Shown one piece after another: positions 523 through 53,382 of a DNA stretch of 64,000 nucleotides (its first letter is position 1; each line of letters begins with the position of its first letter). A program made the translations under genes and the position numbers. Origin of the DNA: a virus. The notes under the pieces are model-generated. The model saw only the letters and a program-made list of their open reading frames with translations, was not told the DNA's origin and did not search any database. The stretch lies in the IMG/VR virus record IMGVR_UViG_3300005096_000058, positions 46,148-110,147 of that record; one strand, given 5' to 3'.

Positions 523-1959
523 TTAGGGCTGCCCTTTGAAGTTGGGAGCGCGGCCGATGTTTTTGATCAGCACGGCTTTCCCGGGGGCGTAGAGCACCGG
601 CACGCCGTAGACCAACTGCATCCAACGGATGGACGTGTTGATCGTGGCCAACGGTACTTTGAGGAATGGCGCCAGCTGTTTCCAGCTGAGACATTCCAAG
701 TTTTGCTGCCAGAGGATCGCGATCGACGTGAACGGCAGACGATCGTTGAGATCCGTGACGGTGTGTTCACCGGCACCAGACGTGTTGGGGATGCGCGCGA
801 TGAGCCGTTGTTTGCCAACGGGGCCATCTTTGCGCGTGCGGTAGAGCTCGTACCACTTCACACCGATGGCAGACCCGGGGGTCACACCAAACGTCATGGA
901 GTCACCAGCGGCAACCGCGATGGCACCACCGCTGACCGCGACTGCGACACTGCGACCGGAATCGTTGTGCGCAGAAACGCTGTAGAAGTAGCTGCCCGCA
1001 TCGTCCGCTCCGAAGAGTGATCCGACGTCGACAGGGGTCGTGGCACCCGTGGAGATCGTCGGGGTGGCTGGCCGTAGCGCAGCATCACCCGCGGCGGTGG
1101 TCTTGGGGGCACCACCGTCGTTGACGAACACGTTGGGTTCGAATTTGACGTCACCAGCGGGGCTGGTGAAGCCAGACACGTCGAGGCCCACCATCCCATC
1201 TTTGCGCTTGTCCAGAAGGTCATAACGGCCTTTCGGGAAGAAGCTTTTGATGAGGTCGGCTTTGATCTTCGGATTCAGATGCAGATGCGTCGGAATGCCG
1301 TAGTTGGGCTCATCGGAAATGGTCAGTGCGGCGTCGATGAGAATGTCCTCGTCGAGCGGCTGACCACGTTGGTCGATGATGTTGTCAGCCGGCGCATTGT
1401 CGGTGATCAACTTTTCATAGCCATCGAACTGGATGTTCGACAGCGAAGAGTCCGCATAGAACATCGCGCGCTCGACGATGCGGAGAAGCCACATCGTTCC
1501 GGCCACGGTTTCGTTCGCGATGACATTGCCGTGAGCCGGGCGAATCAAGCTCATGACATGGGACACGCTGCGTGTCGTTCCGAGGAACTTCACGGCGGCG
1601 TAGCGTCGGGCGTAGGTGGAGTCGTCTTCGGTCGGCAACGCCCCTTCCGAAATGAACCCTTCAAGACCCTCGCCGTAGCTCGAAATCTCATTGTGCTCTT
1701 CTACTGTGTTGTACGCAGCCAATTTTGGGATCGCTTTGAACAGCCGAATGTGCTCCATGCGGTAGGTGACGTTTTTCAACGTCTGCTCCAAGGACTCCAC
1801 GCGGAGCGGGAAGCCTTGCCCGGGCGCAGCACCGGGGTTGTTGATGTCGCCGCCCGCAGTGAGCGCCTTGTTGAGGTGGTCGAGGTCGGTCGAGGAGAAT
1901 TGCCCGTCGCCGAATCCGTCCACCCCGTCGTAATCTTTCCAGGAAACTTGGTTCATCAT
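523..1959 (-). CDS. major capsid protein, HK97-like fold with Ig/FnIII-like insertion
   Basis: 478 residues, expected to form the icosahedral shell. The start is ATG 1959 (an ATG-ATG pair) with GGAGGG about 10 nt upstream. Position after protease and scaffold-like genes is the classic head order. The N-terminal arm (about 40-100, including LEQTLKNVTYRMEH) is followed by a capsid-like core with TRSVSHVMSLIRP and GYEKLITDNAPADNIIDQRG. Residues about 300-400 look inserted: a Gly/Thr/Ser/Val-rich beta segment with SYFYSVSAHNDSG and VKWYELYRTRKDG, typical of fibronectin-III/Ig-like domains that decorate capsids. The chain returns to the core with LYGVP-like hydrophobic strands near the end. The N-terminal arm has a partial copy encoded at 13764-14192. 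Confidence 0.82.
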   Translation of the reverse strand: MMNQVSWKDYDGVDGFGDGQFSSTDLDHLNKALTAGGDINNPGAAPGQGFPLRVESLEQTLKNVTYRMEHIRLFKAIPKLAAYNTVEEHNEISSYGEGLEGFISEGALPTEDDSTYARRYAAVKFLGTTRSVSHVMSLIRPAHGNVIANETVAGTMWLLRIVERAMFYADSSLSNIQFDGYEKLITDNAPADNIIDQRGQPLDEDILIDAALTISDEPNYGIPTHLHLNPKIKADLIKSFFPKGRYDLLDKRKDGMVGLDVSGFTSPAGDVKFEPNVFVNDGGAPKTTAAGDAALRPATPTISTGATTPVDVGSLFGADDAGSYFYSVSAHNDSGRSVAVAVSGGAIAVAAGDSMTFGVTPGSAIGVKWYELYRTRKDGPVGKQRLIARIPNTSGAGEHTVTDLNDRLPFTSIAILWQQNLECLSWKQLAPFLKVPLATINTSIRWMQLVYGVPVLYAPGKAVLIKNIGRAPNFKGQP

Positions 1960-2733: not shown

Positions 2734-3576
2734 TTAGAGCATTCCCTGCTCTGCCAAGGTGGTGAGCACGCCGTAAGCGTGCTCGACGAAAGACGCGTCG
2801 GCTCCGGGGAACCGCGCGCGAATGGTGGTGATCGCTACGCTTTTGCTCAGCTGCTCATCCTGTGTGGCAGCGAGATCTTTCTTGTCGCGTTCCAATGACT
2901 GCGGGGACAGGATGCGACCTGCGCCCTCCCCCGTTGTGGGGCCCTGTGAGCTCGGATGCGTGCCTGCGGGTGCGGCGGCCCCGGTGGTAGCCGTCATGGC
3001 CTTGCTTGCCTCTTCAGCAGCTTCCTCGTCGCCCTCTTCCACGGCTACCAGGCTCTTGGCTAGACATTCCAGACGAGTGCCATAGCCGACCGGGCAATTG
3101 GTGATCGCGGTGTGCTTCACGACTGCTTCAGCGATCGTCTTGTTGTTAGGGCCGGTGCGGCGGACCACGTCGCCCTCAATTGAGAAGCCCAAGCGGCGCT
3201 CATTGCCGGCTTTGGCGAAAGCCAGTCCCAGGTCCCAGATGCGATTTGCGCGTGGGGTGTCGAGCATCCAGCCTTCAGCCCAGGTGCCGTTCGTGGAGGC
3301 GGTCGCGCCATCTGGGAGGCGATCGCCCTTCTGGAACCTCCGCACCTCTGTGGGGTAACCAAGCGGGCTGTCTGTATCTTTGCTGTGGTTGTCGTTGAAG
3401 AACCCAGTCTCCAAGAACGGCTTGAAATTGAGTCCCCTCTGGATCACCACCTCGCCTTGCTTGTCGAGAATGTTTGTGGAGATCACGCCCGCAATCCTCC
3501 TCCGTTGCCCACGCGCGCCGTCCGCCTTCTCAAAAAAGGACAGAGGGGCGAAGAACTTGAAGGGGTTGCTGCCCAC
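2734..3576 (-). CDS. prohead (capsid maturation) protease
   Basis: 280 residues, GTG start at 3576 with a GGAG site upstream. The domain at about 25-140 follows the pattern of phage prohead proteases related to the herpesvirus assemblin/HK97 gp4 group: GVISTNILDKQGEVV, then NDNHSKDTDSPLGYP with candidate catalytic His64, then RRLGFSIEGDVV with candidate catalytic Ser132. It would cleave scaffold and capsid N-termini during maturation. The Ala/Glu/Pro/Gly-rich tail (190-235) ends in a helical C-domain that may act as built-in scaffold. The neighbouring scaffold-like and capsid genes support the role. Confidence 0.75.
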   Translation of the reverse strand: MGSNPFKFFAPLSFFEKADGARGQRRRIAGVISTNILDKQGEVVIQRGLNFKPFLETGFFNDNHSKDTDSPLGYPTEVRRFQKGDRLPDGATASTNGTWAEGWMLDTPRANRIWDLGLAFAKAGNERRLGFSIEGDVVRRTGPNNKTIAEAVVKHTAITNCPVGYGTRLECLAKSLVAVEEGDEEAAEEASKAMTATTGAAAPAGTHPSSQGPTTGEGAGRILSPQSLERDKKDLAATQDEQLSKSVAITTIRARFPGADASFVEHAYGVLTTLAEQGML

Positions 3577-3943: not shown

Positions 3944-4293
3944 AGGATGTCCTGGAAGAGCTTGCCCAGATTCGTCTGGATGTCCGCTTCGTTCTCGGGC
4001 TTTGGAAAGATGGAGGGACGCCACGCGGGCGACAAGATCTTGTAGTAGCGATCCATCGTCGGCCAAAGAAGCGTCACCAAGCCACCCGCCGCAGGGAGTC
4101 GCACAATGCCCTCCTCTTCGTCGTCGAGGAAGTCAGGATGCTCGTCGAGGATAGGTAGCGTGACCGCCCCGTTACCTGGGATGTTCCTCAGATAGATGTC
4201 GCCCTGAGAGAAAAAAGGACGGACGACGTCAGTTAAGCGTCGATGAGGATTTGGGCGGCCGTCGAGGGCTAAATAGAAATGGTCGTATTTCAT
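3940..4293 (-). CDS. hypothetical protein in head gene cluster
   Basis: 117 residues, ATG at 4293, sharing four bases (ATGA) with the stop of the giant gene upstream, so the two are translationally coupled. The protein is acidic in the middle (DEHPDFLDDEEEG) with aromatic N- and C-terminal stretches. I do not recognise the family. Location among head genes suggests a minor structural or assembly role. Confidence 0.6.
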   Translation of the reverse strand: MKYDHFYLALDGRPNPHRRLTDVVRPFFSQGDIYLRNIPGNGAVTLPILDEHPDFLDDEEEGIVRLPAAGGLVTLLWPTMDRYYKILSPAWRPSIFPKPENEADIQTNLGKLFQDIL

Positions 4294-7200
4294 GGGGCAG
4301 GCACCTTCAAGCCTTTGCAGGCCTTGTTGATGGAGGCGTTATTCTGCGTTGGGCTGGTGAAGAAGAAATCAGCGACGGGGATGTTGTTGATCTCAGTCTT
4401 CCCCGCTGACGTCAGCGTCTCAATCAATCCAGATCTGACTTGGTCGGAAGCACACCACACACCTGCAATGTCCTCGTGTGCGACACCATGCTCAAACAAG
4501 ACTTCATGGCTACTAGAATTCAAATTGAGTGTGTCAGGTTTTGACTTAGCCGGTGCTTGCGATCCGTAACCGTCGTGGTTGTGGGCCCAATAATCAGCCC
4601 GCTTCAGAATGCGAGGTCGATAGATATAGCGCACGGTAGAACCCGTATTGTAGCCATGCACACCGCTCGCCTGAGGACCACCTTTGCGTGCGATCCTCGT
4701 GAACACGCCTGCTGCGCCACCGGTATTCACGTCGGAGCCCGCCTGTGACGAGTAGGGTGCGGTGCCGGTTGTGTACCCCTGCTTCCGAGAGGGGACGCCA
4801 GTTTCTTGGAGCAGAAAGGCTGTGGCCGCACCGGGTGAATCGGCACCCGTGTGCACAAATTGCACGTCTTTGAGATCAGCATCGGTGATTTGATCAAATT
4901 CAACGGTGTGGGCGCCGCCCGCGCCCACCTTGATGCGGGCTGTGTCGACGTACTTGTCGAATCCAGATTTCTTGAGTTGGGAGTCGAGCCAAACTTCGTT
5001 GTCGTAGTTTTTCCGAGAAGCGCCCCAGTAACCCTTAGCCCCTAACGAGTTTCGCACAAGCTGCGATTTGATGAATAGCCGCTCAGCTTGTCCATCATGC
5101 GCGCTGGCAGCTAGCGCGGGCGCGATTCCCGCCAGCTGCAAGCCTTGTTGAAGTTCCGTTTGCACATCTTTTGACGCGGGGATACGCGCAACGAAGCGGT
5201 TCCGCATCGCCAACCCCCCATGGGCTTCAGGGGCTAGATCGCCGTTGTGCGCCACGCCTACGTAGGACCCCCCGTCCGTGAGCCCATCAAAACCAAACCA
5301 GCCCCCCTCAATGACGTTGTCTCCTTTTTTGTGGAGCCCAGTGTCCTCGTCATATACGTCGTACACCGCCCCACCAGCTTCATCCGTGGTGGAGGTGTAT
5401 TTGATCTTCCCTTTAGAAAGCTTGGATTTCTGCGGGTTGAAATTAAGCAGGTCGCCCGTGACCTCAAAGAAATCCTCGCCGTCTGGATTCGCAACACGGC
5501 GGACGCTGATCTGGCTGTTGATCCAGAGTCCCGCGCCGCCATGCCTAATCGTGTGACCCCAATGCCCCATCTTGATCGCATCGAGAGCACCGAGGTCAGC
5601 CTCGTTGTTGATGGCAAGCTCGCCTTGCTTCTGCGGCCCAAGAGCAAACGGGGGGGCCGACTGCGCAAAAGCAGGAGGCAGATCGGGAAGCTTGGGCGTA
5701 GTCACCGTCGTGGTTTCCACCGCGACGTCAAGGTCCGCTTTTGTCACGGTGAACACCGTGTTGGTGGCCACCATGGGCTCGCCGTGAACAGTGATGCTCT
5801 TGTCTGCAAGATATTGTTTGGCGGCTGCTTGCGCCTCGTTGGTAATCCCGCCGAATTTGATGACAATTTTATCACTGTCCGTGTCGTGCGGCTTGATCTT
5901 TTTAGGCTTCCCGAGGCCCTCTTCCGAAAACCCAGACACGAAATCAGCGACCACCTCATGTTTGACTGTTTTGGTGGTCACTTCCGTCTGCTCAAACGTG
6001 GTGCCCGCAGGGTAGTCAACGTTGTCTGGACCCTTGATCGTTTGCGTGCCTGGGAAGCGGTTGGCGAGTTCGTCCTTGCTCACGCCGAGCATGTCCCCAA
6101 GAGGAGAGGTTACGTCCGTCGACGGGGGCATACTTTGCCAGTTGGCCACCGCCTCTTTGAACTTCGCTGAATCCTTGCCGGCAATCAGGAAGTTACCTTC
6201 CCCATCGTCGTGCACGTGCAGCCCACCCTCGTAGCCCAGGCCAGCTAGCTTCTCCTGCAAGAAGGACAGGGTGAGGAGGTCCGAAGCCTTGTTGGATTGG
6301 GGGTGGGACTTCACCCAAGCTGCCCACGCCTTGGCCTTCTTCACTTTTTCAGAGTCAACACTTGGTTTTTTTACCGTCGGCGCGAGAGGTTTAGGTTTCT
6401 TCTTCTTTTTGACCGGGTCACCAGGCCACTGCACAGAAGCACCACCGGCCTCCTGAATCATCGAGGCCGCTTTTTTGGCGGTGAACCCCTCGCTGAGGGT
6501 GACGCCCTGTTTGTTCGTGACGCTGAACATGGGGTTCAACGCATTGGCTCCTGGACCGAGTGAGCTAAGCGTTTCCCCCCACTTGGTGTGTAGCTTCACG
6601 CCTGCCGGGAGGGCGTAAATCTTATCTATGACCGTCGTCAGTTTCAAATTGGAAGGAAGTGACTTCAGTTTCTTCTTGCCAGCGTCTGGACCCGGGGAAT
6701 CGAGGTCGGCATGGTCTACATACGGAGGCTGTGCAGCCGACTCAGCCACTGTGGTTTCGGCGGCGTACAGTTTGGAGGAAACGTCGGCGTCTGTGGGTAC
6801 GTCGGCCCACGCACCGCTGCTAGGCCCGGGCCCAAAGAATTCGACTTCCCAATCGAGCGCGTGGTCAGCTAGAAACGACGCTAGGGCCTCTGTAGGGGCC
6901 GCGCTCAAACCTTGTTTCGCATAACAATACAGTGAGTCATCTTCTAAATTAAATTCAGCCGCATATTTCTCTTGCACAGACGCGAGCGCGACGTACTCGG
7001 CTAGCGGTAGTTTGTCGACGACGACTTTGTTCTTCTGCTCCGGTGGGATGTCCTGCGGGTGAACGCCGATCGCTTCACCTGCGGTGGGCAAAGCCTTGTA
7101 CGTAGCAAACGAAACGTCTTGAGGGAAAGACGCATCAACGAGTTTGAATGCCGCCTTCACCTCGGCAATTGTCAGATTATAGATACCCATGAGATCTGCG

Positions 7201-10200
7201 AGCGCGTAATCCAATGCGAGAGCGGACGACGACGACTCAGCCCCATGGACAATCTTTCCATCCTCGTCGATCGCCACAAACTTCAGTGTCGGCGAAGCGT
7301 CTCCGTCCTCGCCGTACCCGGTCGCCGATGGGGTGATCCAGATCTTCTCACCGTGCAGCACCCCTTCGAGCCAAACACCCATCGGAGGCACCCACGACGC
7401 CCAATGCGGGGATTTCATCCCGAAAGTCTTGTTGGGCTTGCCCGGGACAGGTAATCCAGACAGCTTGGTGGCATTGCTCCAGACAACATCTTTGTCGGGG
7501 AAATCTGGCAGCGCTTCCTTTGTCGTGACCACGGTGGGTCCGATGTCCCCTGTGATGCTCGGGGTGGCTGGCTCCGGGTCAAGGTTGGGCGGACCTCCTG
7601 CGAGGAGCAGCTCCAAGGTGGTTGGATCTTTGGCCTCGACGGGTTGGCCGCCCTTGAGGTCGACGGACCACTCAACCGACTCAGAAGAGAGCCATTCCGC
7701 CGTGTAAACCATGTCCAGCTTGGGGTTCAGCCACTTACCTTGCGGGAAGTCTTTGTGGCTTATTTTCGTGAAGGTGTCTATTCCGTCGTTGATCTCAGCG
7801 TCAACGGGGAGCGCGTCTAGCTCAGCCACCGTGAGGGGCTTGGTCCCCGACGTGTCTGGAGATCCGGGCTGGTCCTCGATACTCAGCGCATGTTCGATCA
7901 TGTCGCTGACTGTGTAGCTGGCACCGCTGATGGTCTGGAAAGCTCCAGACAGCTGCTTCTTGTATTGGTAGCCCGCCACGTCCTTCAGCACCGTGCCAAA
8001 AACCAAAGCTTTAAGCTGTGCTGCGGTGGGCACCTTCGATCCCTGCCACGCGAGAGAACTCGGGGGTGGTGGCGGCTCACCGATTGAATTCACCTTCAGA
8101 CCACCAAAGCCCGAAGCGGCGTCCTCAGCAACGTCCGCACTCAACTCTGTGGCAGTGAGTGCTGTAGTCATCGACCCACCCATAGGCTTCCACCCGTCAG
8201 GGTGTTTGACCCAGCCCTCACCCTCAGGGTCAGAGTTGGGGAAGGGCTTAGCGACCGGGTCGCCATAACCCAGCACAGAGCCTATGGGGAGCTCGTCGAG
8301 CTCATCCGCGGTGGGACTCTTCCAACCATCCCAGCCAGGTTCTCCGGGTGGCTGTAGGGCTGCTTCCGCCGTGGTCGCGATGACGTTGGCGAACTCCATG
8401 AACTCGCCCGTCTTGGGCTTCACACCGAAGAACTTCCAGCCGCCTCCTGAAGCGATCTTCGTTTTGCCCGTCTTGGCTTTGTAATCGGCTTTGCCGAGAT
8501 AGCCCTTCTGGACGAGCCAAACGTGATCACTGGCCGCGCTCAGGCTTTTGTGTTTGGTGACGTCGTCGCCCTTTGGGGCCTTGATCGTGACCTCAAATCC
8601 CTCCTCCAAAACTTCCAGCTGCACCTTGAGTTCCCCGAGGTGATCAAAAGGCTTGGTGAGCTCGTGCTTATGACCAATAGGGAGGGGACCACCCTTCTTC
8701 GGGTATTTCACCTCTTTGGGCGTCTGGACTTTCTTAGCTGCGGGGGTCACTTCAGCTTGAGGCGCTGGACCTGCCGGGAGCGGCTTTGGCTTTGGTTGCT
8801 TGGCGGTTTGCGTCGCCTTGGCGGCAGCAACTACCGACGGGAGAGCGAGGACGGACTTCAAACTTTGGGATGCAGGGTGCGTTGACCCGAAGACCACGGG
8901 GACACCAGTTGAGGGCACTGTGACGTTTTTGAGCAGCGGGGCACCGCCTTCGGCGGCCTGATGGACGACCCAGATGTCGAACGTTCCATCCGCGCTGAGA
9001 ATTTTGATGACGCTGCCAGGCAGAGGGAGCGTTTTTGGCCAATCATGCGGGACGGATATTGCAGCATGCTCCATCGCGAACGTCAGGGCCGCTGGGGGAA
9101 TGAGCGTGGAGTCGGTGACGATCCCATCTTCAACCGCGGCCAGCATCTCGTGCAGCGTGATCTCTTTCTTCTCGGGGGCTAGGCCCAGCTCAGCCATGAG
9201 TTCGTCAGCGCTCATGCTCCCGATCGTTGGCTCCGATGTGGTGCCTGCGGCCTGGAACTCCCCTTCAAATTGCTTCAGCGCGAAAAGCTTGGTGGCCGGG
9301 TAGGCGATGCCTTTGGCTTTCTTTTCCGTCGAACCCATGTCTAGAGGCAAACCCTTGTTGAACAGCTGCGTGCTGTCCGCAGCCGCTGCGGGGGAGGGGT
9401 AGATCTTTGTGGTCCCGTTGGGGAAAAGCACTGCGATCGCAGGCTTCCCATCGACGGAATCAAAGCCAAACTCAAAAACGTTGCCCGCCATCTTAACCGC
9501 GGCCTGGTATCCGGGGCCGGGGTATTTGGTGGGCCAGCCGGGGGGATGCTCACCACCAGGGGCGTGCACAGTCACGTTCCCCTTGGTGACGGGCCAGCCG
9601 GGTGTCTGGACGAAGTCGACGATCTTCTCGGTCTTATCCTCGACGGGGGTGATCGCAGGCTCATCTGCGGCTGACGGGATCGTGACTTTGTCCCCCGTCA
9701 TCTCAGAGAGGAATGTCTCCCAGTTGCTGCGGAGATCTTTGAACCGCTTCTCAATCAGCGCCCATTTTTTCTTCGGCTCAAAGTCTTCCAGACCCTGCGC
9801 GGCGTCTTCCAGATAGGGGGCCACGATGCTGTGGTACTGCTCCACGGACAGGTTCTTCTCGATACTGAGCAACACCTCCGTGACAGCTTTGATGGGGTCG
9901 CCTTTGATTTCCCCGTTTTGGAAGAGCTTCCACATTGCATTGTACGCGGGAGAACTCGCGTTCAATTTATAGCTGGTGCTGAGCTTGTCTGCGCCGATCG
10001 CTTTGAACGCTTGGCCTTTATCAATAGCGGCGAGGTCACCACCGAGCGTCTCGACGAAGTTGGCCCCGTGGCTATCGTGGTTGGACATCATCCAATCCAG
10101 CACTTGGTGCTGCACTAGCCGCTCAAAATGTTTTTGAAGCTTGGCTTTAGTGGTCCCGTGATCACCACTGACCTCGTTGCCGATGGTACCTTTATTGTCG

Positions 10201-10970
10201 ACCCACGACAGGAGCACCCCTTGGTCGCCAGCGTGCTCAATCATCTCCGCGTCTGGATATAGACCCTCCTTGGGGAAGACGAGAGAAGCCACTCGGTTGA
10301 ACGCCTCTTCAGCACGGCTCACCCAAGTTTGACCTCCGTTGGTTTTCCAGGCGTACTGGTTCCCATTTTTGTCCTCGACGATCTTACCGCCGTGGCTGCC
10401 CCCCAGGTTTCCCTTGAGTTTGAGCGTCGCAAGCAAGCTGTCTGGAAACGGAGGATCAGCGTCAGCCCCCGAGGCCCCTTTGGCCGACCACGCGGTGATC
10501 TCGTGCGGAGGGGGCACCAACGGTTCCCCAACGTGCTGCCAAAGTTCAGACGCTTTGAACTTGACCAAGCCGCCGATGCCAGCGGACTTGAGCCCGGGGA
10601 AAGAAGCCAGCAACAGCTGGGCGTCGCTGGCGCTGACGACGAAGATGCCTGCAAAACCCCCACCTTTCGATTGGATGCCCACGTCCTCTAACCACTCCCA
10701 AATTTGAGAGGCATGATCGGAGTCTTTTGGGTGGAGAGGTGGCGCGCCCTTGGTGGCCTTGGCCGCGTCTTTTTTGGCTTTGAGCTTCTTGGCGGCAGAG
10801 GACCCACCGTAGACCGGTTTGCCGTGCACCCAACCGACGATCTTGCCCCCTTTGGGGCCGATCGCCAGCACGACCATGCCGTTCGCAAACCCGAGCTTGG
10901 GCTTGGGCGTCTTAGCTTTTACGGCCTTGGAAAGGGCCGCAGGTTGGATTGCTAGCGCCGTCTGGAACAT
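4290..10970 (-). CDS. giant multidomain virion-type protein: kinase-like domain, repeats, possible ADP-ribosyltransferase C-terminus
   Basis: 2226 residues, ATG 10970 with GGGAG just upstream. Residues about 185-330 look like an atypical (HipA/PI3K/fragmin-type) kinase: a Gly-rich loop GNLGGSHGGKIVED near 188, a candidate nucleotide Lys around 209, catalytic-loop-like SNHDSHGANF (296-305) and DxG-like AAIDKGQAF (314-322). The middle about 1500 residues are Pro/Lys/Thr/Ala-rich linkers with repeated short modules such as TADELDELPIGSVL and TVAELDALPVDAEI. The last 200 residues contain FVHTG (His2041), a Gly/Ser/Thr segment and SSHEVLFEHG (Glu2156), an order recalling the H-Y-E core of ADP-ribosyltransferases found at the ends of phage head proteins. 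It sits next to a Mu-F/gp7-like gene, so packaging in the head and ejection with DNA is plausible. Kinase-like: fairly sure. ART: tentative. Confidence 0.7.
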   Translation of the reverse strand: MFQTALAIQPAALSKAVKAKTPKPKLGFANGMVVLAIGPKGGKIVGWVHGKPVYGGSSAAKKLKAKKDAAKATKGAPPLHPKDSDHASQIWEWLEDVGIQSKGGGFAGIFVVSASDAQLLLASFPGLKSAGIGGLVKFKASELWQHVGEPLVPPPHEITAWSAKGASGADADPPFPDSLLATLKLKGNLGGSHGGKIVEDKNGNQYAWKTNGGQTWVSRAEEAFNRVASLVFPKEGLYPDAEMIEHAGDQGVLLSWVDNKGTIGNEVSGDHGTTKAKLQKHFERLVQHQVLDWMMSNHDSHGANFVETLGGDLAAIDKGQAFKAIGADKLSTSYKLNASSPAYNAMWKLFQNGEIKGDPIKAVTEVLLSIEKNLSVEQYHSIVAPYLEDAAQGLEDFEPKKKWALIEKRFKDLRSNWETFLSEMTGDKVTIPSAADEPAITPVEDKTEKIVDFVQTPGWPVTKGNVTVHAPGGEHPPGWPTKYPGPGYQAAVKMAGNVFEFGFDSVDGKPAIAVLFPNGTTKIYPSPAAAADSTQLFNKGLPLDMGSTEKKAKGIAYPATKLFALKQFEGEFQAAGTTSEPTIGSMSADELMAELGLAPEKKEITLHEMLAAVEDGIVTDSTLIPPAALTFAMEHAAISVPHDWPKTLPLPGSVIKILSADGTFDIWVVHQAAEGGAPLLKNVTVPSTGVPVVFGSTHPASQSLKSVLALPSVVAAAKATQTAKQPKPKPLPAGPAPQAEVTPAAKKVQTPKEVKYPKKGGPLPIGHKHELTKPFDHLGELKVQLEVLEEGFEVTIKAPKGDDVTKHKSLSAASDHVWLVQKGYLGKADYKAKTGKTKIASGGGWKFFGVKPKTGEFMEFANVIATTAEAALQPPGEPGWDGWKSPTADELDELPIGSVLGYGDPVAKPFPNSDPEGEGWVKHPDGWKPMGGSMTTALTATELSADVAEDAASGFGGLKVNSIGEPPPPPSSLAWQGSKVPTAAQLKALVFGTVLKDVAGYQYKKQLSGAFQTISGASYTVSDMIEHALSIEDQPGSPDTSGTKPLTVAELDALPVDAEINDGIDTFTKISHKDFPQGKWLNPKLDMVYTAEWLSSESVEWSVDLKGGQPVEAKDPTTLELLLAGGPPNLDPEPATPSITGDIGPTVVTTKEALPDFPDKDVVWSNATKLSGLPVPGKPNKTFGMKSPHWASWVPPMGVWLEGVLHGEKIWITPSATGYGEDGDASPTLKFVAIDEDGKIVHGAESSSSALALDYALADLMGIYNLTIAEVKAAFKLVDASFPQDVSFATYKALPTAGEAIGVHPQDIPPEQKNKVVVDKLPLAEYVALASVQEKYAAEFNLEDDSLYCYAKQGLSAAPTEALASFLADHALDWEVEFFGPGPSSGAWADVPTDADVSSKLYAAETTVAESAAQPPYVDHADLDSPGPDAGKKKLKSLPSNLKLTTVIDKIYALPAGVKLHTKWGETLSSLGPGANALNPMFSVTNKQGVTLSEGFTAKKAASMIQEAGGASVQWPGDPVKKKKKPKPLAPTVKKPSVDSEKVKKAKAWAAWVKSHPQSNKASDLLTLSFLQEKLAGLGYEGGLHVHDDGEGNFLIAGKDSAKFKEAVANWQSMPPSTDVTSPLGDMLGVSKDELANRFPGTQTIKGPDNVDYPAGTTFEQTEVTTKTVKHEVVADFVSGFSEEGLGKPKKIKPHDTDSDKIVIKFGGITNEAQAAAKQYLADKSITVHGEPMVATNTVFTVTKADLDVAVETTTVTTPKLPDLPPAFAQSAPPFALGPQKQGELAINNEADLGALDAIKMGHWGHTIRHGGAGLWINSQISVRRVANPDGEDFFEVTGDLLNFNPQKSKLSKGKIKYTSTTDEAGGAVYDVYDEDTGLHKKGDNVIEGGWFGFDGLTDGGSYVGVAHNGDLAPEAHGGLAMRNRFVARIPASKDVQTELQQGLQLAGIAPALAASAHDGQAERLFIKSQLVRNSLGAKGYWGASRKNYDNEVWLDSQLKKSGFDKYVDTARIKVGAGGAHTVEFDQITDADLKDVQFVHTGADSPGAATAFLLQETGVPSRKQGYTTGTAPYSSQAGSDVNTGGAAGVFTRIARKGGPQASGVHGYNTGSTVRYIYRPRILKRADYWAHNHDGYGSQAPAKSKPDTLNLNSSSHEVLFEHGVAHEDIAGVWCASDQVRSGLIETLTSAGKTEINNIPVADFFFTSPTQNNASINKACKGLKVPAP

Positions 10971-11002: not shown

Positions 11003-11275
11003 CTACTGGACAACGTAGAGCTCAACCGCTTTTTTCTGTGGAGCGCCGAAGCTTTTAGCCAAGGCGGATTCAAGGTCGGCAGCGTCAGGGAGCGCGTGCC
11101 TGGCCGCGAGCTCGCCGTCTGCACGGATGTCGTAGAACGTCCCCGTGAGCTCGGGGCTGTTACGCTCGATCTCCAGGTTGCGCTTTCCAGACACCCAAGC
11201 CCGCGCGTACGCGCCAAGCACTTGCATACCAAAGTCCGTGAACGATCCGTCTGCGTTTTCAGTTGGTAAGGTCAT
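11003..11275 (-). CDS. hypothetical small protein between two polyvalent head genes
   Basis: 90 residues starting at ATG 11275, which overlaps the TGA of the preceding gene (ATGA), giving tight coupling. The product is acidic with a helical C-terminal half (DLESALAKSFGAPQKK). No family recognised. Its position between two large head proteins suggests an accessory or chaperone role, but nothing in the sequence proves it. Confidence 0.6.
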   Translation of the reverse strand: MTLPTENADGSFTDFGMQVLGAYARAWVSGKRNLEIERNSPELTGTFYDIRADGELAARHALPDAADLESALAKSFGAPQKKAVELYVVQ

Positions 11276-13767
11276 AGCCAACTCTTTTCATCTTCCAGTT
11301 CGAGTAGGTGGGTGACGGGGCTGTCTTCACCTAAAAATTTCACAGCCACCGCTAAACGTTCCTCGTCGTCGGTAGCATTTCCCCAGGCGGACCATCCTTC
11401 CTCACCCATCTGCTCATCAGGAATGACTACAATAGGGACAGACACACCGGCCGCCTTGGCCGCAGCAACTCTATGCGAACCGGTCCAAGCGTCTGGGCGG
11501 ACAGGATCGCCAGAAACCACGACGGGGGCGCCCACAAATTCACCTTGGGCGCGGAAGCGGCGCTCAATCGATTTTAATTTGTCCTGGTCGCGTACCTCGT
11601 GGAGGGGGTTGATCCGACTAGCTTGTATACTGCGCTGGCGCCTAATTGCGTGGCCTTTTAGATTCGAAAAATCAGCTGTATCTTTCGTATAGGGGATCGT
11701 GTGCTGTGGGTCGGCCCACTTGCCCCCTCGCGGTCCCAAGAACAAAGCCTTGTCTAGTAGATCGTCGCCACTCTTAGTGCCGAGGTCAATCGGTTTGCGT
11801 TCCTCGTCGTTCTCAATGATCCGCGCTGAATCATCTTCGATGGGCCAACGGGGCCTGCCCTCTTGCTGCGTCGGGTGCCACTGGCCTTCGGGCTGACGGA
11901 CAGCGCCGCGGTTGGTAGGTACGTCGCGCATCTGGAAACTGATCCGCGCCACCTCACGCTTGTGCTCTTCCGCGCGGTTCTCCGTCTCGTCGGGTGTGAT
12001 GATGTTCTTGGTGTTCTTGTAGGCATCGGCGATCGCGTAAATCTGCGTGTCGACACCCGCCCCAAAAACATAGATGCTGGGGTCGCGGCGGACGATGACA
12101 TCGCCATGATGTTGCGCCCCTTGGAGGTATTCGCGGACACCTGCGACGTCATGAGGGTTGTGCGGCTTGGCCGGTAGCTCGGCCTGAATGTTGACCCCGC
12201 CGCCGCTGCCTTCTTTGAGGATGAACTGCCCGCCGCCAACGGCGAAAGCTGTACCGCTCACACCCTCGACGTAGGGGACACCCTTCCGCATGAGGGTCAC
12301 CGCTCGTCTGCGGATCTTAGGCCGAATTGTGAACCGCGCGTCTGGACGGAGAGGAGGAGGCACCGGCTCCACGTAGTTGGGGTTGGGCACCACGAACTCA
12401 GGGGTGGCTTTTGACAACTTGCGCGGGTTGGCCAACGTGGTGGTGAGCTTGTCTTTGAGCTTGCCCACGCTCATCGTCGTCATGCTTCCGAAAAAACCTT
12501 CGTCATCGTAGTTGGCGAGATAGGCCGCTTTGGCCTCCCCTGCCGACGAAAAACCAAGCATAACCTTGTCCTCGTCGTAGCCCTCAAACTTCCCCTCTAA
12601 GGTGCGCTTGCGTTGGTGCACGACGTACGCCTTCGATGCAAGGGGGTTGGGTCCGACGAAGCAATCGACGTGATCACCGTCGACACCAAGCGTGCGCCGG
12701 ATGTAGCCGTAGGGCCAAAGCATCACGCTGGCCCCTGAAGTCTTGTTCTTGTGGTCCTTCCAAAAGCGCAGTCCACCCGCGCCGTTCTCGATGGCGATGT
12801 CCATGCCTTGGAATTGCAGCTCCCCGTCCAGACGGTACGCCTTCACCAGCGCGTCCATATGCTGGTCTTCTGCTCGCAGCGCTTTCTCCACGTCGTCAGC
12901 AGCACCCTCGTACTCAACACCAAACTCGCCGCCTGGCACCATCGTACCATCTTCGTCGTAGCCCCATCCTGCGGGGACGCGAACAGCCTGGCACTGGCAA
13001 TTGGGATGAATTGAGCCAATGCTTGGTACCCAGTCCGCTGCTTTCTTCCCCACGTTGGACCCGGGGGCGCCCAACTGAGACAGCTTGAAGATGATCGGGG
13101 CACCGTCGGGGCCTAAACTCAATCTGAGGCAGTGTTTGCAGGCGTCGGGCATGGCGATCAGAGAGACCCGGGCGTCCTCACCATATTGTTTGCGGAAACC
13201 GTCGGCGACGCCTTCCTGCATGACGTTGTGCTTCTCCGTGACGGCAATGCGGTCGAGGTTGCGGGTCCAGTCCTGCATGGCGTGCCCGAGCTTGCTCTTG
13301 AGCGTACCCACCGTGCTGCGGCTAGCCACATTCTCAGAGGTGCTCGTCTGGATGTCAGCTTGAAGTTTTTTGCGCTGGGCCTGGTCAGCTTCGATCAGGA
13401 GCTTGCCCGTCTGGATGTCGATCGTGTTCCCCAGCCCCTGCACGTACTGGGCGGCATTGATCTTAGCCGTCTGGATGGCCTGCTCCTCGACGGCAGACAA
13501 TGGGATGGGGTTTTTGGCGAGTTCAGCCTTGACCTTGTCGAGGTCCCAGGTAGGCATATTTGGATCTTGAAGCTTGGCCACCAGCTGGCCGTAGGTGTAC
13601 GCGGTTTCAAATAGATCTTCGTGGCCCTCTAGCAGCCCCGCGCTCTTCAGATCAGCCACAACTCCAGCCGGAATAGCAGTCGGACCAAAGACGTCGACGA
13701 CAAAAGCAGCGTTGTGCTTCTGGATGACCTCCTTCACCAACTGCATGAGTTCCGGGGTGAGCTTCAT
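11272..13767 (-). CDS. polyvalent minor head protein: Mu-F/SPP1 gp7-like, pyrophosphatase-like and ParB-like domains
   Basis: 831 residues. ATG 13767 overlaps the preceding stop as ATGA. The helical N-domain ends with DACKHCLRL (near 208-216) and SIHPNCQCQA (near 252-261), the Cys/His signature of Mu gpF/SPP1 gp7 head-morphogenesis proteins that act at the portal. Around 330-450 an inorganic-pyrophosphatase-like domain is indicated by YGYIRRTLGVDGDHVDCFVG. A Gly-rich spacer and the motif GPRGGKWADPQHTIPY (678-693) follow. The C-terminus (about 710-790) resembles a ParB/sulfiredoxin fold with VVVSGDP and TGSHRVAAAKAAG. Such fusions are known as polyvalent proteins, ejected with the genome to protect it or alter the host. 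The domain order is visible; the ejected role is inferred. Confidence 0.75.
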   Translation of the reverse strand: MKLTPELMQLVKEVIQKHNAAFVVDVFGPTAIPAGVVADLKSAGLLEGHEDLFETAYTYGQLVAKLQDPNMPTWDLDKVKAELAKNPIPLSAVEEQAIQTAKINAAQYVQGLGNTIDIQTGKLLIEADQAQRKKLQADIQTSTSENVASRSTVGTLKSKLGHAMQDWTRNLDRIAVTEKHNVMQEGVADGFRKQYGEDARVSLIAMPDACKHCLRLSLGPDGAPIIFKLSQLGAPGSNVGKKAADWVPSIGSIHPNCQCQAVRVPAGWGYDEDGTMVPGGEFGVEYEGAADDVEKALRAEDQHMDALVKAYRLDGELQFQGMDIAIENGAGGLRFWKDHKNKTSGASVMLWPYGYIRRTLGVDGDHVDCFVGPNPLASKAYVVHQRKRTLEGKFEGYDEDKVMLGFSSAGEAKAAYLANYDDEGFFGSMTTMSVGKLKDKLTTTLANPRKLSKATPEFVVPNPNYVEPVPPPLRPDARFTIRPKIRRRAVTLMRKGVPYVEGVSGTAFAVGGGQFILKEGSGGGVNIQAELPAKPHNPHDVAGVREYLQGAQHHGDVIVRRDPSIYVFGAGVDTQIYAIADAYKNTKNIITPDETENRAEEHKREVARISFQMRDVPTNRGAVRQPEGQWHPTQQEGRPRWPIEDDSARIIENDEERKPIDLGTKSGDDLLDKALFLGPRGGKWADPQHTIPYTKDTADFSNLKGHAIRRQRSIQASRINPLHEVRDQDKLKSIERRFRAQGEFVGAPVVVSGDPVRPDAWTGSHRVAAAKAAGVSVPIVVIPDEQMGEEGWSAWGNATDDEERLAVAVKFLGEDSPVTHLLELEDEKSWL

Positions 13768-14192
13768 CCCAGGCGGCCACGCGGCGTTGGGCACGTGATG
13801 GCCCGGTCGTGGTCAAGCGGGAACGCCTTGAGCACGATCTTCGGCTTACTAAAAAAGAACTCACGGATGCGCTGCTTGAGAGGTGGTCGGTACGCGGGCA
13901 GACCGGAAGCGATGCGGTGGTGCTCATCAAGGGTGTTAAACATGGGCGCCTGCTTAATGTCACGCCAGAACTCCACGTGCTCCATCTTAAAACTGACGCT
14001 GCGTAGCGTCAGCTCCAACGGCTCCGCGCGCCAGCCCACGCCTTGGGGGGGTAACGTGAGCGCCTCAAGTACCTCACCATGTGTCAACCGCGTGACCGGC
14101 TTGTACCCGAGGTCCAGGTTAGCTGCGAGCATGGCACCAGCAATACCAATACCAAGCTTCTTAAAGAATCCGCGACGTGTATCTGACATCAT
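13764..14192 (-). CDS. capsid-arm paralogue with Tat-like N-terminal signal
   Basis: 142 residues, ATG-ATG at 14192 overlapping the upstream TGA. The N-terminus reads DTRRGFFKKLGIGIAGAMLAA, a twin-arginine motif followed by a hydrophobic stretch, as in Tat signal peptides or an anchor. Residues about 45-90 resemble the N-arm of the major capsid protein: LELTLRSVSFKMEH here against LEQTLKNVTYRMEH there, followed by FNTLDEHHRIAS against YNTVEEHNEISS. The capsid core is absent. It could be an arm-mimicking assembly factor or the remnant of a capsid duplication. Confidence 0.6.
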   Translation of the reverse strand: MMSDTRRGFFKKLGIGIAGAMLAANLDLGYKPVTRLTHGEVLEALTLPPQGVGWRAEPLELTLRSVSFKMEHVEFWRDIKQAPMFNTLDEHHRIASGLPAYRPPLKQRIREFFFSKPKIVLKAFPLDHDRAITCPTPRGRLG

Positions 14193-15057: not shown

Positions 15058-18000
15058 CTATAGGTCGAGGTCGATGCTCACAATACCCGGCACCGCCGCT
15101 GGTGTCCCCTGCCCCCCCAAAGCCTGTGAGGACCAGCTGCCTTTGCCGAATGGATTTCCTCCCCCAGACGAGCCCTTCTTGGCTTCCTCATCGGAGGTGG
15201 CAGCTGCGCCGTCCTCAGCATCTGCTGCGTTCTCGTTTTGGATGCCATCGAGTTCACCACCGAATGCGGCGTCCGTGCCGTCGTCCTCCGCAAAGTCTCC
15301 GGTGCCCATCTCCTGCTGCGCCGCCATCGTCTTGTTTTGCATCCAGACAGCGTGGAGAATGACTTGCCCCTCTCCGTCTGGAAGCGGCGGGAGATCTTCC
15401 TCGGCACGCACCTCGTCGACCATCTTGTACGATGTCACCTGCTTTGTATTGAGGTCAGCGAGCTCGTCTGGGGTTTGCGCGTCCAGACCGACAAAAGCGA
15501 ATTCGAAATCTTCGTCGATGCGGTGAACGAGGAAGGAGGACAACCGGTGCTGGATAAATCGGAGAAGGGGCTGCAGCCCTTTGTCTTTGGACTGCGCCAG
15601 CTTTTGCTTGTTGCTCGACTCAAACATCGAGCCGCCGCTGCCCCCGCTGTCCCCATATTTGAAGTTGATCTCCATCGGATCCATGCCGTAGATCGCGCAC
15701 GCCACCTTGATCAGGAAATCAAACCACGCGCTGAATTCCATGTCGCGGTTGGATTGCTGCAGGTTGATGTATTGGAGCTCCTCCGCATTTGTGATCGGAG
15801 TTTTGAATGCGTTCTCGACGCCAGCGACCATCGAATACCAATGACGGCGAAAAGCGCGCAGCTGTTTCTCAGGCACGGCACCTTTGAAGTTGATGATGCC
15901 TTTGGTCGACGTGCCTTGGCTGTTGTGCACGGCCATGTGGTTGAGCACGAACAGGTGCTCGTCGTTGAAAACCTCGACATCGAACATCTCACGATCTTCG
16001 TCGGCGTGACCAACAACCTCAACCGGCACCTGTAGGTAGCGCAGCCACGCGGGCTCCTCAGCACCGAGGCGTTGCAGAAGGTGGATTGCGTAGGCGCGGC
16101 TCATCGTCACGCGTCCCCCCGACGCTTTGCGGGCCATGTCGCGCTCCGCAACAGAGAGGGACTTGTAGTTGTCGTGCTTCCAGACGTGCGTACCAAGGTT
16201 GCGGCTCAAGTGCGGGTGCAACCGGTCCCAGCGATCGCGCTGAGCAGGACTGCGTTCAATCCCCTCGTTTTTGTACGCCTGCAAATAACCCACGGACGAC
16301 GTGAAAGAGGCGATGTCCTGCACGGTGATGGTACCGTGTCGGCTCGCAGCTGTGCCTCCACCCACAAGGTTTGAAGCCACGCCCACCGACCACAAACACT
16401 TGAGGATGTCCTGCGCCAGAGCCGGATCGGAGGAATGCACGCTTGGGGTACGGTAACCTGTGGCGTGTGTGGCGGTGCAGCCATCAGCACTGAAGATGCC
16501 GCGGAGCAAAGCGGCACGGATGTGCGCTGGCTGGCGGTAGACACTTTCAGGGATGCGCTTACCCTCACGAGACGGGCGGAAACCAATGTCACGCAGCCAG
16601 CGGTGGAACGCTGTGTGGCATATTTGCAACGCTGGGTAACCAAACTCGCCATCGCTACGCTCGATGGTTTTGTTGATCACACGGTCGGTGCAATGAATAC
16701 CATGCCTCACGCAAACAGCCTTAAACCGTTCGAAGAGATCAGCATCACGAGAATAGTGCGGGAAGACTTGCAACCAGCTGGGGGTGTCTCGCCCTTCATC
16801 GGGGAAGTACCCATCACCTAGCGCGAAGCCCATGAACTCCCAAAATTCAGGGTCCTCAATGAGCGCTTTCGTGGGGCGGAAGTCGCGTCCTGTTTTTCGA
16901 TCGGTGTCGTAAACGCGGTCGACGAGGAGGGTCTCATAATCGAATTCAGGGTCGGAGCGCTCATAGCTGACCAAGGCGAAATCGCCGGCCTGCAAGTCTT
17001 CTTGGCGGACCCATTCGGGATCACCATCACGGGAGCTCGCTGGGATCACGCGGTACCTATGGTCGGGACTGGTGGTGAGCTCCAGCCCATTCCACAATGT
17101 GGTGACCGCGGTGACCTTCTTGCCTGTGGGGAAAGCGCGCGCCTCCCCCCAAGTGCCTGGGCCAGTGCTGGCCACGAAGTTTTTTCCAGACAGATCCCTC
17201 AAAGGGATCAACCCTTCTGATGTGGTCACCAGCCCGTCGCCATCCGCACAAAAGAATTTCTGATTATAGTCCCATGACCAAAGTAACGACGTCACCGTCG
17301 AGATCAACATCTCTGTTTCGGCAATCCCGTACCCTTGGTTTCGGATGTCCGTGACCGGATTGCGAACACCAAAACACATCTGATCAGCGCCATATTCGGC
17401 TGTGACCAGGCCGTCGTAGATCTGGACGTAGCGGGTCTCTTCGGGTGTGCCTTGGTAGTAAAGCTTGGTTGTGTCCGCGATGCGCAGCGTGGCGCCGTCA
17501 ACGGCGTAGAAGTCGTAAGGCTTGTCACCACGATCTTCCCGCACCTCGAAACCCAGTTGGTCATAGGTCAATGCGTCGCGCACGATCTTGCGCAAGAACG
17601 TCTCAAAATTGTCGCGAGCATTGGGTGTGCCGCGGTCGTTGACCTTGCCCGTTGTCATCACCCAGTTGGTGATCTCTTTGCTCTTCTTTTCGCTGGCCTT
17701 AGAGGGGGAAGCCTTGCGATCACGCAACTGGATGCGAAAGCCTGTCTGGAACTTGTCCTCCTGCGGCAGACTGAAATTGGCCATCTGGTCGGTGCGCGTC
17801 TTGATGATCGCCTGGATGATCGGCATGCGGAAGACCATCGCCGACAACGTCGAGTAACTGATTGAGCTTGGCCGCTCTTTGTATCCGAGCGCGTCAATGA
17901 CTGAGAACGGATCCCAGAACAAGGCTTTGGGATCGCTGACCGGATCACCAATTTCTGACGGGTGTGGACCGGCCGTTGCGGGCGTGTCCGTAGTGGGTTG

Positions 18001-18099
18001 TGCGCCGTCGTCACCCTCATCCTGCGCCTTGGACAGCACATCGAGAGCCGCCGTAGAGGCGGCTCCCGCTGCTTCCCTCACTGTGTCGAAGAGCCCCAC
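15058..18099 (-). CDS. portal protein, interrupted by an intein
   Basis: 1013 residues as translated; removing the intein (residues 284-726) leaves about 570, a normal portal size. GTG start at 18099. The extein shows portal-type features: PSSISYSTLSAMVFRMPIIQ near the N-terminus, FRIQLRD, DQLGFEVRED, and a splice junction joining DYNQKFF to SQGTSTKGIINFKG, the usual portal segment where a Gly-rich loop follows a QxF sequence. The C-terminus carries an acidic low-complexity tail. The protein forms the DNA entry ring at one capsid vertex and docks the terminase. It sits two genes downstream of TerL and just upstream of head-morphogenesis genes, the expected order. Confidence 0.85.
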   Translation of the reverse strand: MGLFDTVREAAGAASTAALDVLSKAQDEGDDGAQPTTDTPATAGPHPSEIGDPVSDPKALFWDPFSVIDALGYKERPSSISYSTLSAMVFRMPIIQAIIKTRTDQMANFSLPQEDKFQTGFRIQLRDRKASPSKASEKKSKEITNWVMTTGKVNDRGTPNARDNFETFLRKIVRDALTYDQLGFEVREDRGDKPYDFYAVDGATLRIADTTKLYYQGTPEETRYVQIYDGLVTAEYGADQMCFGVRNPVTDIRNQGYGIAETEMLISTVTSLLWSWDYNQKFFCADGDGLVTTSEGLIPLRDLSGKNFVASTGPGTWGEARAFPTGKKVTAVTTLWNGLELTTSPDHRYRVIPASSRDGDPEWVRQEDLQAGDFALVSYERSDPEFDYETLLVDRVYDTDRKTGRDFRPTKALIEDPEFWEFMGFALGDGYFPDEGRDTPSWLQVFPHYSRDADLFERFKAVCVRHGIHCTDRVINKTIERSDGEFGYPALQICHTAFHRWLRDIGFRPSREGKRIPESVYRQPAHIRAALLRGIFSADGCTATHATGYRTPSVHSSDPALAQDILKCLWSVGVASNLVGGGTAASRHGTITVQDIASFTSSVGYLQAYKNEGIERSPAQRDRWDRLHPHLSRNLGTHVWKHDNYKSLSVAERDMARKASGGRVTMSRAYAIHLLQRLGAEEPAWLRYLQVPVEVVGHADEDREMFDVEVFNDEHLFVLNHMAVHNSQGTSTKGIINFKGAVPEKQLRAFRRHWYSMVAGVENAFKTPITNAEELQYINLQQSNRDMEFSAWFDFLIKVACAIYGMDPMEINFKYGDSGGSGGSMFESSNKQKLAQSKDKGLQPLLRFIQHRLSSFLVHRIDEDFEFAFVGLDAQTPDELADLNTKQVTSYKMVDEVRAEEDLPPLPDGEGQVILHAVWMQNKTMAAQQEMGTGDFAEDDGTDAAFGGELDGIQNENAADAEDGAAATSDEEAKKGSSGGGNPFGKGSWSSQALGGQGTPAAVPGIVSIDLDL
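15922..17250 (-). other. intein (443 aa) with LAGLIDADG endonuclease inside the portal gene
   Basis: Portal residues 284-726. The first residue is Cys in CADGDGLVTTSEG (block A). Block B has TSPDHRYRVI. The homing endonuclease shows two LAGLIDADG-type helices, WEFMGFALGDGYF (about 420-432) and LLRGIFSADG (531-540). The C-terminal splice blocks are MFDVEVFNDEHLFVLN and HMAVHN, followed by Ser as the first C-extein residue. All catalytic splice residues (Cys1, His in block B, penultimate His, final Asn, +1 Ser) are present, so it should splice. The domain is in frame and appears intact. Confidence 0.9.
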
Positions 18100-52344: not shown

Positions 52345-53382
52345 TCAGCTGTCTGGATACGGAGCGGCATGTGTGTCCCCTTTCATAAGGTAAAGCTGGC
52401 GGGCTGCAGACGCGGCGCGCATGAGTCTGCAAGCCAAGTGTTGTAGCTCCTCAGTCTTCTCCACGGCAATGACCCAGTCGAGGCGGATCTCCCCATAGCC
52501 CACGTACGCTCCTGCGAGTGCACCAGCGATGGCGGCAATGCTATCGCTGTCTCCGGGAGAATTGGCCCCCATGCGGACCACGGCTGTGTGCCCACCCACT
52601 TTGACGTAGCGGAGAAACACAAAGAGCGCAGCCGCCACGGCTTCGTGCCCGGCCCATCCGCGCCATTGGTCCAGCATAGCGGCTGTGGTGATCTTGCCGT
52701 CCTGAGCAGACGCTTCGGCGATCACGAGCATGTCCCCGGTGCCTTGGTCGTAACGGTAAGCGGCGTCTTGCATGCTGGAGGCGATGCGTGCGGGATCGTA
52801 GTTGCGTAAAGCTGACCAGACGCCAGCGGCCAGAGCGGCACTCGCAGCCATCGCCAACGGGGCGCCGTGGGTCAACCGGCTGTGCTCCGCTGCCACCTTG
52901 ATCGCGCGCGCACGATCGTCAAAGTAGAACAGCCCGTAAGGGTGCGCACGCATGACGCTACCGCAGCCACCCGCACCGTCGTTGGTGTTGGGTCCGCCGC
53001 ACTCCCACCAGGGAAGCTGGCCCTCGTCGAGCTTAGTGCACCCTGACATGCACGCGCCGCCTGGAGCCCGATTATTGTCTGGGCTTTTGTACCAAGCAAT
53101 GAACTCCTCAGCGACTTCAGAGGCGGCGTCATTCACCGTACCCACCTTGCCAGCTCGGATCAGGCCCTCGGCCACCGCGCGGGCCATCTGCGTGTCGTCG
53201 CTGTAGATTGCGCAGTTTTCTCCGTCGATCTCGCGTAGTTGCAGCGTCTGGATACCGGCAGAGCCAAAGCGTTTGTGTATGTCCGCCATGGACGAGAACT
53301 CGACGGTATAACCCAACGCATCCCCTATGGCGGACCCCAAAATGCACCCCATGAACTTGTCTTTCAGATCGATTGCAGGCAC
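52345..53382 (-). CDS. ADP-ribosylglycohydrolase
   Basis: 345 residues, GTG start at 53382 with AGGAGG upstream, first gene after a shared-family promoter. Motifs of the DraG/ARH family: GCILGSAIGDALGYTVEFS, YSDDTQMARAVAEG (Asp62, Asp63), NDGAGGCGSVMRAHPYGLF, HSRLTHGAPLAM and NSPGDSDSIAAIAGALAGA (Asp278, Asp280). The enzyme removes ADP-ribose from modified arginine or other targets using two Mg2+. In a phage it may undo ADP-ribosylation by host defence (DarT-like) or balance the phage's own transferase. Confidence 0.88.
   Translation of the reverse strand: MPAIDLKDKFMGCILGSAIGDALGYTVEFSSMADIHKRFGSAGIQTLQLREIDGENCAIYSDDTQMARAVAEGLIRAGKVGTVNDAASEVAEEFIAWYKSPDNNRAPGGACMSGCTKLDEGQLPWWECGGPNTNDGAGGCGSVMRAHPYGLFYFDDRARAIKVAAEHSRLTHGAPLAMAASAALAAGVWSALRNYDPARIASSMQDAAYRYDQGTGDMLVIAEASAQDGKITTAAMLDQWRGWAGHEAVAAALFVFLRYVKVGGHTAVVRMGANSPGDSDSIAAIAGALAGAYVGYGEIRLDWVIAVEKTEELQHLACRLMRAASAARQLYLMKGDTHAAPYPDS

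What the first reader, a model, noticed from the sequence alone, without database searches (positions are those of the whole stretch)
4290..10970. Giant head-region protein joining a kinase-like domain and a possible ADP-ribosyltransferase
Kinase-type motifs (SNHDSHGANF, AAIDKGQAF) near residues 296-322 and an H...E arrangement near 2041 and 2156 sit at opposite ends of about 1500 residues of repeats and linkers. A virion-carried enzyme able to modify host proteins at the moment of infection would be an unusual combination. The ADP-ribosylglycohydrolase encoded at 52.3-53.4 kb could later reverse the ADP-ribosyl mark.
Basis: inference. Interest (0 to 1): 0.7.

Follow-up and report, generated by a model that had tools for sequence, protein, structure and literature searches.

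The report
Phage head protein with two enzymes
A giant protein made from this virus's capsid gene cluster carries what look like two host-modifying enzymes, a kinase and a likely ADP-ribosyltransferase, and the same pair turns up with a gene that could erase the ADP-ribose mark both in other phages and on large Streptomyces plasmids.

Summary
The ORF is real (2226 aa) and lies in the head operon between a MuF/pyrophosphatase gene and the capsid protease.

Kinase half: supported. A confident model (pLDDT 86) has a PI4K/CtkA/HipA-type kinase fold (best Z 14.7). Lys209, Asp299 and Asp317 are invariant in 38 sequences. At least 102 viral contigs encode the domain. Pfam finds nothing in this copy.

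ART half: probable, not proven. Residues ~1973-2208 belong to an unnamed family with conserved His2040 (93%) and Glu2156 (100%). The structure model failed (pLDDT 44) and profile comparison had no power. Context favours an ART. Of 70 kinase-bearing proteins with intact ends, 42 end in this family, 26 in a canonical ART, none in both. Streptomyces plasmids encode kinase and this domain as adjacent genes, with the plasmid's only ADP-ribosylglycohydrolase (ARG) about 5-6 kb away (5/5).

ARG link: 8 of the 12 GenBank phage records with the kinase carry an ARG, against 30 of 50,697 overall; these are few lineages.

Virion-delivered ARTs, including MuF-ART fusions, are already published. The kinase partner, the unnamed C-terminal family and the ARG linkage appear new. 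Virion presence and activity are untested.

The parts
4290..10970 (-). giant head-region protein, 2226 aa
   Evidence: open frame with ATG start; 62% identical full-length relative in L004
9681..10445 (-). PI4K/HipA-type kinase-like domain, residues about 176-430; Lys209 codon 10344-10346, Asp299 codon 10074-10076, Asp317 codon 10020-10022
   Evidence: AF2 pLDDT 85.9; PI4KIIalpha Z 14.7 over 235 residues, CtkA 13.6; invariant residues
7659..8324 (-). three repeats of about 62 residues (883-944, 978-1039, 1043-1104), unknown role
   Evidence: local HMM; part also matches phrog_2021 of unknown function
4347..5054 (-). C-terminal His/Glu domain, residues about 1973-2208, probable ADP-ribosyltransferase; His2040 codon 4851-4853, Glu2156 codon 4503-4505
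   Evidence: local HMM family; no Pfam, NCBIfam or PDB match
11272..13794 (-). upstream MuF-like head protein with pyrophosphatase domain; MuF part about 12946-13371, InPase part about 12445-12837
   Evidence: phrog_115 minor head protein 6e-5 and PF18823 InPase 5.9e-31; CxxC...HPxCxC motif at residue 219
52345..53382 (-). ADP-ribosylglycohydrolase (ARG), 345 aa, candidate eraser of the mark
   Evidence: PF03747 8.8e-63; SDDT motif; co-occurrence with the kinase family
15058..18099 (-). portal protein (context)
2734..3576 (-). head maturation protease (context)
   Evidence: phrog_1028 1.5e-31
523..1959 (-). major capsid protein (context)
   Evidence: phrog_752 1.7e-83

Best explanation
The gene encodes a two-enzyme host-takeover effector made with the head proteins. 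Most likely it is packaged with the portal/MuF complex and released into the actinobacterial host with the DNA (inferred from gene position and MuF-fused relatives). There the C-terminal His/Glu domain, a divergent ART, would transfer ADP-ribose from NAD+ to host targets (inferred, about 0.65). The PI4K/HipA-type kinase would phosphorylate the same or other host targets (kinase fold shown by prediction, substrate unknown). Later the phage ARG, encoded with the DNA-metabolism genes, would remove the mark so that it does not harm virus production (inferred, about 0.5). The same kinase + ART-like + ARG set on large Streptomyces plasmids suggests a shared entry toolkit of phages and plasmids.
For: Kinase: model pLDDT 85.9; PI4KIIalpha Z 14.7, CtkA 13.6, HipA 10.7; viral structure hits include Onyinye 'ADP-ribosyltransferase' and portal fusions; Lys209, Asp299 and Asp317 invariant in 38 rows. 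ART-like domain: conserved His2040 and Glu2156; of 80 kinase loci 42 end in this family, 26 in an R-S-E ART, 0 in both, 2 in neither, 10 cut; PF03496 found independently in 19 of 28 members scanned. Operon form: the Streptomyces gene just upstream of the His/Glu gene carries the kinase domain at E 1e-56 to 1e-59. ARG: PF03747 in window and sister phage; 8 of 12 GenBank kinase records against 30 of 50,697 overall, and all 8 ARG mycobacteriophage records are kinase carriers; only ARG on 5 of 5 plasmids, about 5-6 kb from the His/Glu gene. Window and sister records show no PF03496 ART elsewhere. Head-cluster position; MuF or VG15 fusion in many relatives.
Against: No fold for the C-terminal domain (pLDDT 44) and no profile link to DarT, KptA or R-S-E ARTs, though those controls do not find each other either. 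Swappable C-termini are also typical of unrelated toxins. The metal-ligand Asn of the kinase is Gln or Ala in 24 of 38 relatives, so some members may be weak or inactive. Onyinye carries kinase and ART without an ARG. The ARG association rests on few lineages. No virion data.
Confidence: 0.58

Rival explanations
1. The C-terminal domain is a toxin or enzyme of another kind (for example a nuclease or other His/Glu enzyme) that merely occupies the swappable effector position. The ARG then acts on something else.
For: No fold or profile match to any ART. MuF effectors are known to carry many toxin types, more than half of them nucleases (PMC5576092).
Against: Across 30 non-redundant kinase-bearing proteins with an assigned intact end, only two end types were seen, one of them a canonical ART. 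ARG linkage is strong on plasmids and in the window phage, where no PF03496 ART was found. The H-to-E spacing of 116 residues fits His/Tyr/Glu ARTs (own knowledge).
Confidence: 0.27
2. The giant protein is mainly structural (portal plug or ejection protein). The kinase-like domain is a dead nucleotide-binding or scaffold module and the C-terminal domain is unused in infection.
For: Long linkers and repeats; Asn304 replaced in many relatives; encoded among head genes.
Against: The Lys/Asp/Asp set is invariant across very divergent relatives. Both domains persist as separate genes on Streptomyces plasmids that show no head genes in the regions examined.
Confidence: 0.1
3. The kinase serves as regulator or partner of the ART (for example it modifies it, or modifies its target to create an acceptor), not as an independent effector.
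For: The pair is conserved as a fusion and as adjacent genes, and kinase and C-terminus co-occur whatever the ART type.
Against: No direct evidence either way. Pan1 and DSL-LC01 carry the His/Glu domain in other architectures; whether Pan1 lacks the kinase was not checked.
Confidence: 0.3

Closest known systems
MuF polymorphic toxins of temperate phages (PMC5576092)
   Same: head-encoded, C-terminal effector; about 14% of 191 MuF toxins are putative ARTs; delivery with DNA proposed
   Different: the paper's main text does not mention a kinase; in the window MuF is a separate upstream gene with a pyrophosphatase
Polyvalent proteins of phages and conjugative elements (PMC5512222)
   Same: giant multidomain proteins near virion genes; kinase, ART and pyrophosphatase domains are all known there; shared by phages and plasmids
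   Different: the polyvalent kinases described are Ser/Thr/Tyr-type, lack the C-terminal subdomain and come from Verrucomicrobia/Chlamydia/Bacteroidetes; this one is PI4K/HipA-type with a helical C-lobe
T4 Alt, head-packaged injected ART (discussed in PMC5512222, PMC9503650)
   Same: virion ART modifying host proteins at entry is the working model
   Different: no kinase; R-S-E type ART; no ARG partner known to me
'Minor capsid and ADP-ribosyltransferase domain fusion protein' of M. abscessus prophages (BK061312 gp54) and Onyinye gp16
   Same: homologous kinase-like domain followed by a C-terminal ART; the prophages also carry an ARG
   Different: their ART is canonical PF03496; the kinase part is not annotated; no relation to the window outside the kinase region
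HipA / CtkA / PI4KII kinases
   Same: fold and D-x-H-x-x-N...D-x-G catalytic layout
   Different: about 12% identity; 'DKGQAFK' signature; fused to head proteins

Membership tests
PI3K/PI4K-HipA-like kinases | bilobal kinase fold | tested here: met
   AF2 pLDDT 85.9; PI4KIIalpha Z 14.7, rmsd 4.2 over 235 residues
PI3K/PI4K-HipA-like kinases | ATP Lys, catalytic Asp, metal Asp | tested here: met
   Lys209, Asp299, Asp317 in 38 of 38
PI3K/PI4K-HipA-like kinases | metal-ligand Asn after the catalytic Asp | tested here: met
   Asn304 in the window; but only 14 of 38 relatives keep Asn
PI3K/PI4K-HipA-like kinases | phosphotransfer activity | not testable with these tools
   needs biochemistry
Kinase domain of polyvalent proteins (Iyer et al. 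[quoted passage not shown]
   model has helices 122-141 and 189-272 of the C-lobe; definition read
ADP-ribosyltransferase superfamily | ART fold | tested here: inconclusive
   model pLDDT 44
ADP-ribosyltransferase superfamily | conserved catalytic His and Glu (H-Y-E clade) | tested here: inconclusive
   His2040 93%, Glu2156 100%, aromatic at 2090, but their roles are not shown
ADP-ribosyltransferase superfamily | sequence-profile match to known ARTs | tested here: inconclusive
   no match; ART controls also fail to match each other
ADP-ribosyltransferase superfamily | NAD+-dependent transfer | not testable with these tools
   needs biochemistry
Head-packaged MuF/polyvalent effectors | encoded among head genes or fused to MuF | tested here: met
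Head-packaged MuF/polyvalent effectors | present in the virion and ejected | not testable with these tools
   needs virion mass spectrometry
ADP-ribosylglycohydrolases | PF03747 match above cut-off | tested here: met
   213 bits against a 26.2 cut-off
Toxin-immunity pair | antidote gene next to the effector | tested here: inconclusive
   about 5-6 kb away on plasmids and three genes away in Phrappuccino, but over 40 kb away in the window

The most novel reading that the evidence does not exclude
A conserved 'write-and-erase' module: a PI4K/HipA-type kinase plus an ART (canonical R-S-E, or a new His/Glu ART family with no Pfam entry), paired with an ADP-ribosylglycohydrolase. Phages carry it in their heads and large Streptomyces plasmids carry it beside their transfer-like genes, so that both mark the new host's proteins on entry and later clear the mark.
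Probability: 0.35. Interest if true: 0.8.

Novelty: new variant of a known kind. Interest (0 to 1): 0.62.

Why it matters
If right, it adds a second enzyme (a PI4K/HipA-type kinase) and an eraser to the known theme of head-delivered ARTs, names a new candidate ART family spread across actinophages, a cyanophage and Streptomyces plasmids, and makes the question of how a phage limits its own ADP-ribosylation directly testable in M. smegmatis phages such as Phrappuccino.

Tried and rejected
Pfam, PHROGs and NCBIfam on the giant protein or its C-terminus: nothing informative. PDB sequence search with kinase and C-terminal profiles: nothing significant. AF2 of the C-terminal domain failed, probably because the alignment made before the viral relatives were recognised was thin and partly misaligned; both jobs were then used. 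That model was not fold-searched because it would mean nothing. hhalign against DarT, KptA and R-S-E ARTs was inconclusive because ART controls do not detect one another. Early scans with window + L004 only found no relatives; the Streptomyces plasmid hits opened the family. The ART-PolyVal family search in Actinomycetota gave only two weak genomes. A sample of 297 genomes of the Streptomyces class gave the C-terminal domain in 3, so it is rare in chromosomes. Four of six ARG-bearing Gordonia/Rhodococcus phages also carry a PF03496 ART, but no base-rate control was run, so this is not counted as evidence. Literature searches found no paper on a PI4K/HipA-type kinase in MuF or ART head proteins; the library holds open-licence papers only.

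Full report
What is there. The window is bases 46148-110147 of a 110 kb virus record. The ORF at 4290-10970 (-) encodes 2226 aa. In order of transcription the cluster reads terminase (21794-24997), portal (15058-18099), MuF-like protein with a pyrophosphatase domain (11272-13794), the giant protein, head maturation protease (2734-3576) and major capsid protein (523-1959). One close full-length relative is known: 2465 aa on a 107 kb viral contig, 62% identical in its best segment.

Kinase-like domain (residues about 176-430). BLAST links it to giant proteins of mycobacteriophages that are annotated as minor capsid/ADP-ribosyltransferase fusions. A profile scan of viral contigs found 102 relatives, of which 80 were kept. 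In 38 representatives Lys209, Asp292, Asp299, Asp317, Lys318, Gly319 and Gln320 are invariant. A few relatives match HipA_C (best 7.8e-5) and PI3_PI4_kinase (best 6e-4) weakly. The AlphaFold2 model (pLDDT 85.9, pTM 0.81) matches PI4KIIalpha (Z 14.7, rmsd 4.2, 235 residues), H. pylori CtkA (13.6), VPS34, MavQ and mTOR (about 11), actin-fragmin kinase (10.9) and HipA (10.7). Among predicted viral structures the best hit is Onyinye's 'ADP-ribosyltransferase', followed by a portal fusion, an archaeal virus protein named for a PI3K/PI4K domain and others. The kinase fold is therefore well supported; activity and substrate are unknown. The metal-ligand Asn is present in the window (Asn304) but is Gln in 20 and Ala in 4 of 38.

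C-terminal domain (residues about 1973-2208). No family library or PDB sequence matches it. tblastn found relatives on Streptomyces and Kitasatospora plasmids, and a profile found them on Streptomyces contigs. A local HMM built from the window, its sister and Streptomyces sequences then hit, without having been trained on them, the C-termini of many kinase-bearing phage proteins (E 1e-20 to 1e-27 for most). It also hit phage DSL-LC01's 3289-aa protein; tblastn with a viral member found Pseudanabaena phage Pan1's head morphogenesis protein. In 27 non-redundant members His2040 is kept in 93% and Asp2080, Gly2084, Gly2085, Asp2133 and Glu2156 in all.

Is it an ART? Direct tests were inconclusive: the AF2 model failed and hhalign has no power here, as known ART families do not find each other either. 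The case is contextual. (a) Of 80 kinase loci, 42 proteins end in this family, 26 in an R-S-E ART, none in both, 2 in neither and 10 are cut off. One of the two 'neither' cases, Phrappuccino, has by eye ART-like motifs in its tail. PF03496 was found independently in 19 of 28 scanned members. (b) On the plasmids inspected in detail the kinase and the His/Glu domain are two overlapping or abutting genes; the kinase-bearing gene lies immediately upstream in the Streptomyces contigs too. (c) Each of five plasmids of 287-452 kb has exactly one ADP-ribosylglycohydrolase gene, about 5-6 kb from the His/Glu gene. (d) The window phage and its sister carry an ARG but no PF03496 ART, so the His/Glu domain is the obvious candidate writer. 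I put the ART reading at about 0.65.

ARG association in phages. ARG matches occur in 30 of 50,697 GenBank phage records. Three different kinase queries return the same 12 records, and 8 of these carry an ARG (naive hypergeometric 3e-24). That p-value overstates the case: the 12 records form three lineages (M. abscessus/chelonae prophages, Phrappuccino/Settecandela, Onyinye/Leopard/Aikoy), of which the first two have ARGs. Onyinye has none. With the window pair, three of four lineages carry an ARG. In Phrappuccino the ARG gene is gp191 and the giant protein gp195. In IMG/VR, 7 of 34 records have it, mostly the longer ones.

Mechanism. Shown: gene order, kinase fold by prediction, conservation, co-occurrence. 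Inferred: packaging with the portal/MuF complex, ejection with DNA, ADP-ribosylation plus phosphorylation of host targets at entry, later clearing by ARG, whose gene sits beside a Dam-type methylase, in the same part of the genome as Rad50-like and RecA genes. The plasmids carry the same set near annotated ATP/GTP-binding, replication-relaxation, ParB and peptidoglycan-cleaving proteins, which fits the published idea that phages and conjugative elements share entry effectors (PMC5512222).

Compared with what is known. Head-delivered ARTs (T4 Alt), MuF-ART toxins (PMC5576092) and polyvalent proteins with kinase, ART and pyrophosphatase domains (PMC5512222, PMC9503650) are established as a theme, largely by computation. 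The kinases of PMC5512222 lack the C-terminal subdomain and come from other phyla; this one has a C-lobe and is PI4K/HipA-type. PMC9503650 reports ARGs as rare in viruses and sporadic in medium-sized actinophages. What appears new is the kinase as constant partner, the unnamed His/Glu family and the recurrent ARG. Hence 'new variant of a known kind'.

Limits. Loci from one collection are redundant; counts by non-redundant kinase domain are 20 R-S-E, 10 His/Glu, 2 neither, 5 cut. The R-S-E profile was built from family members. Domain borders are approximate.

Noticed in passing
21794-24997 and 15058-18099: Terminase and portal genes both appear to carry LAGLIDADG inteins: Intein_splicing 1e-13 (terminase) and 0.0045 (portal), LAGLIDADG_3 6.6e-14 and 7.7e-7.
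   Followed up: partly
residue 41 of the giant protein (about 10848-10850) and residue about 690 of the MuF/InPase protein: A short GP[KR]GGK motif recurs in head-cluster proteins of the window, L004 and L007; possibly a head-targeting or cleavage signal.
   Followed up: partly
12445-12837: Inorganic pyrophosphatase domain fused to the MuF-like protein just upstream, a known polyvalent-protein domain.
   Followed up: no
L093:3094-12963: Phage DSL-LC01's 3289-aa protein between portal and capsid protease has the His/Glu domain and, by eye, an R-S-E ART and another kinase-like segment; the C-terminal hit is, the rest unverified.
   Followed up: partly
L147:9541-21479: Streptomyces plasmid neighbourhood: kinase gene, His/Glu gene and, on the opposite strand, an ADP-ribosylglycohydrolase gene, beside transfer-like genes.
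   Followed up: yes
L132-L137 records: Four of six ARG-bearing Gordonia/Rhodococcus phages also encode a PF03496 ART, three of them in frames of about 970-1290 aa.
   Followed up: partly
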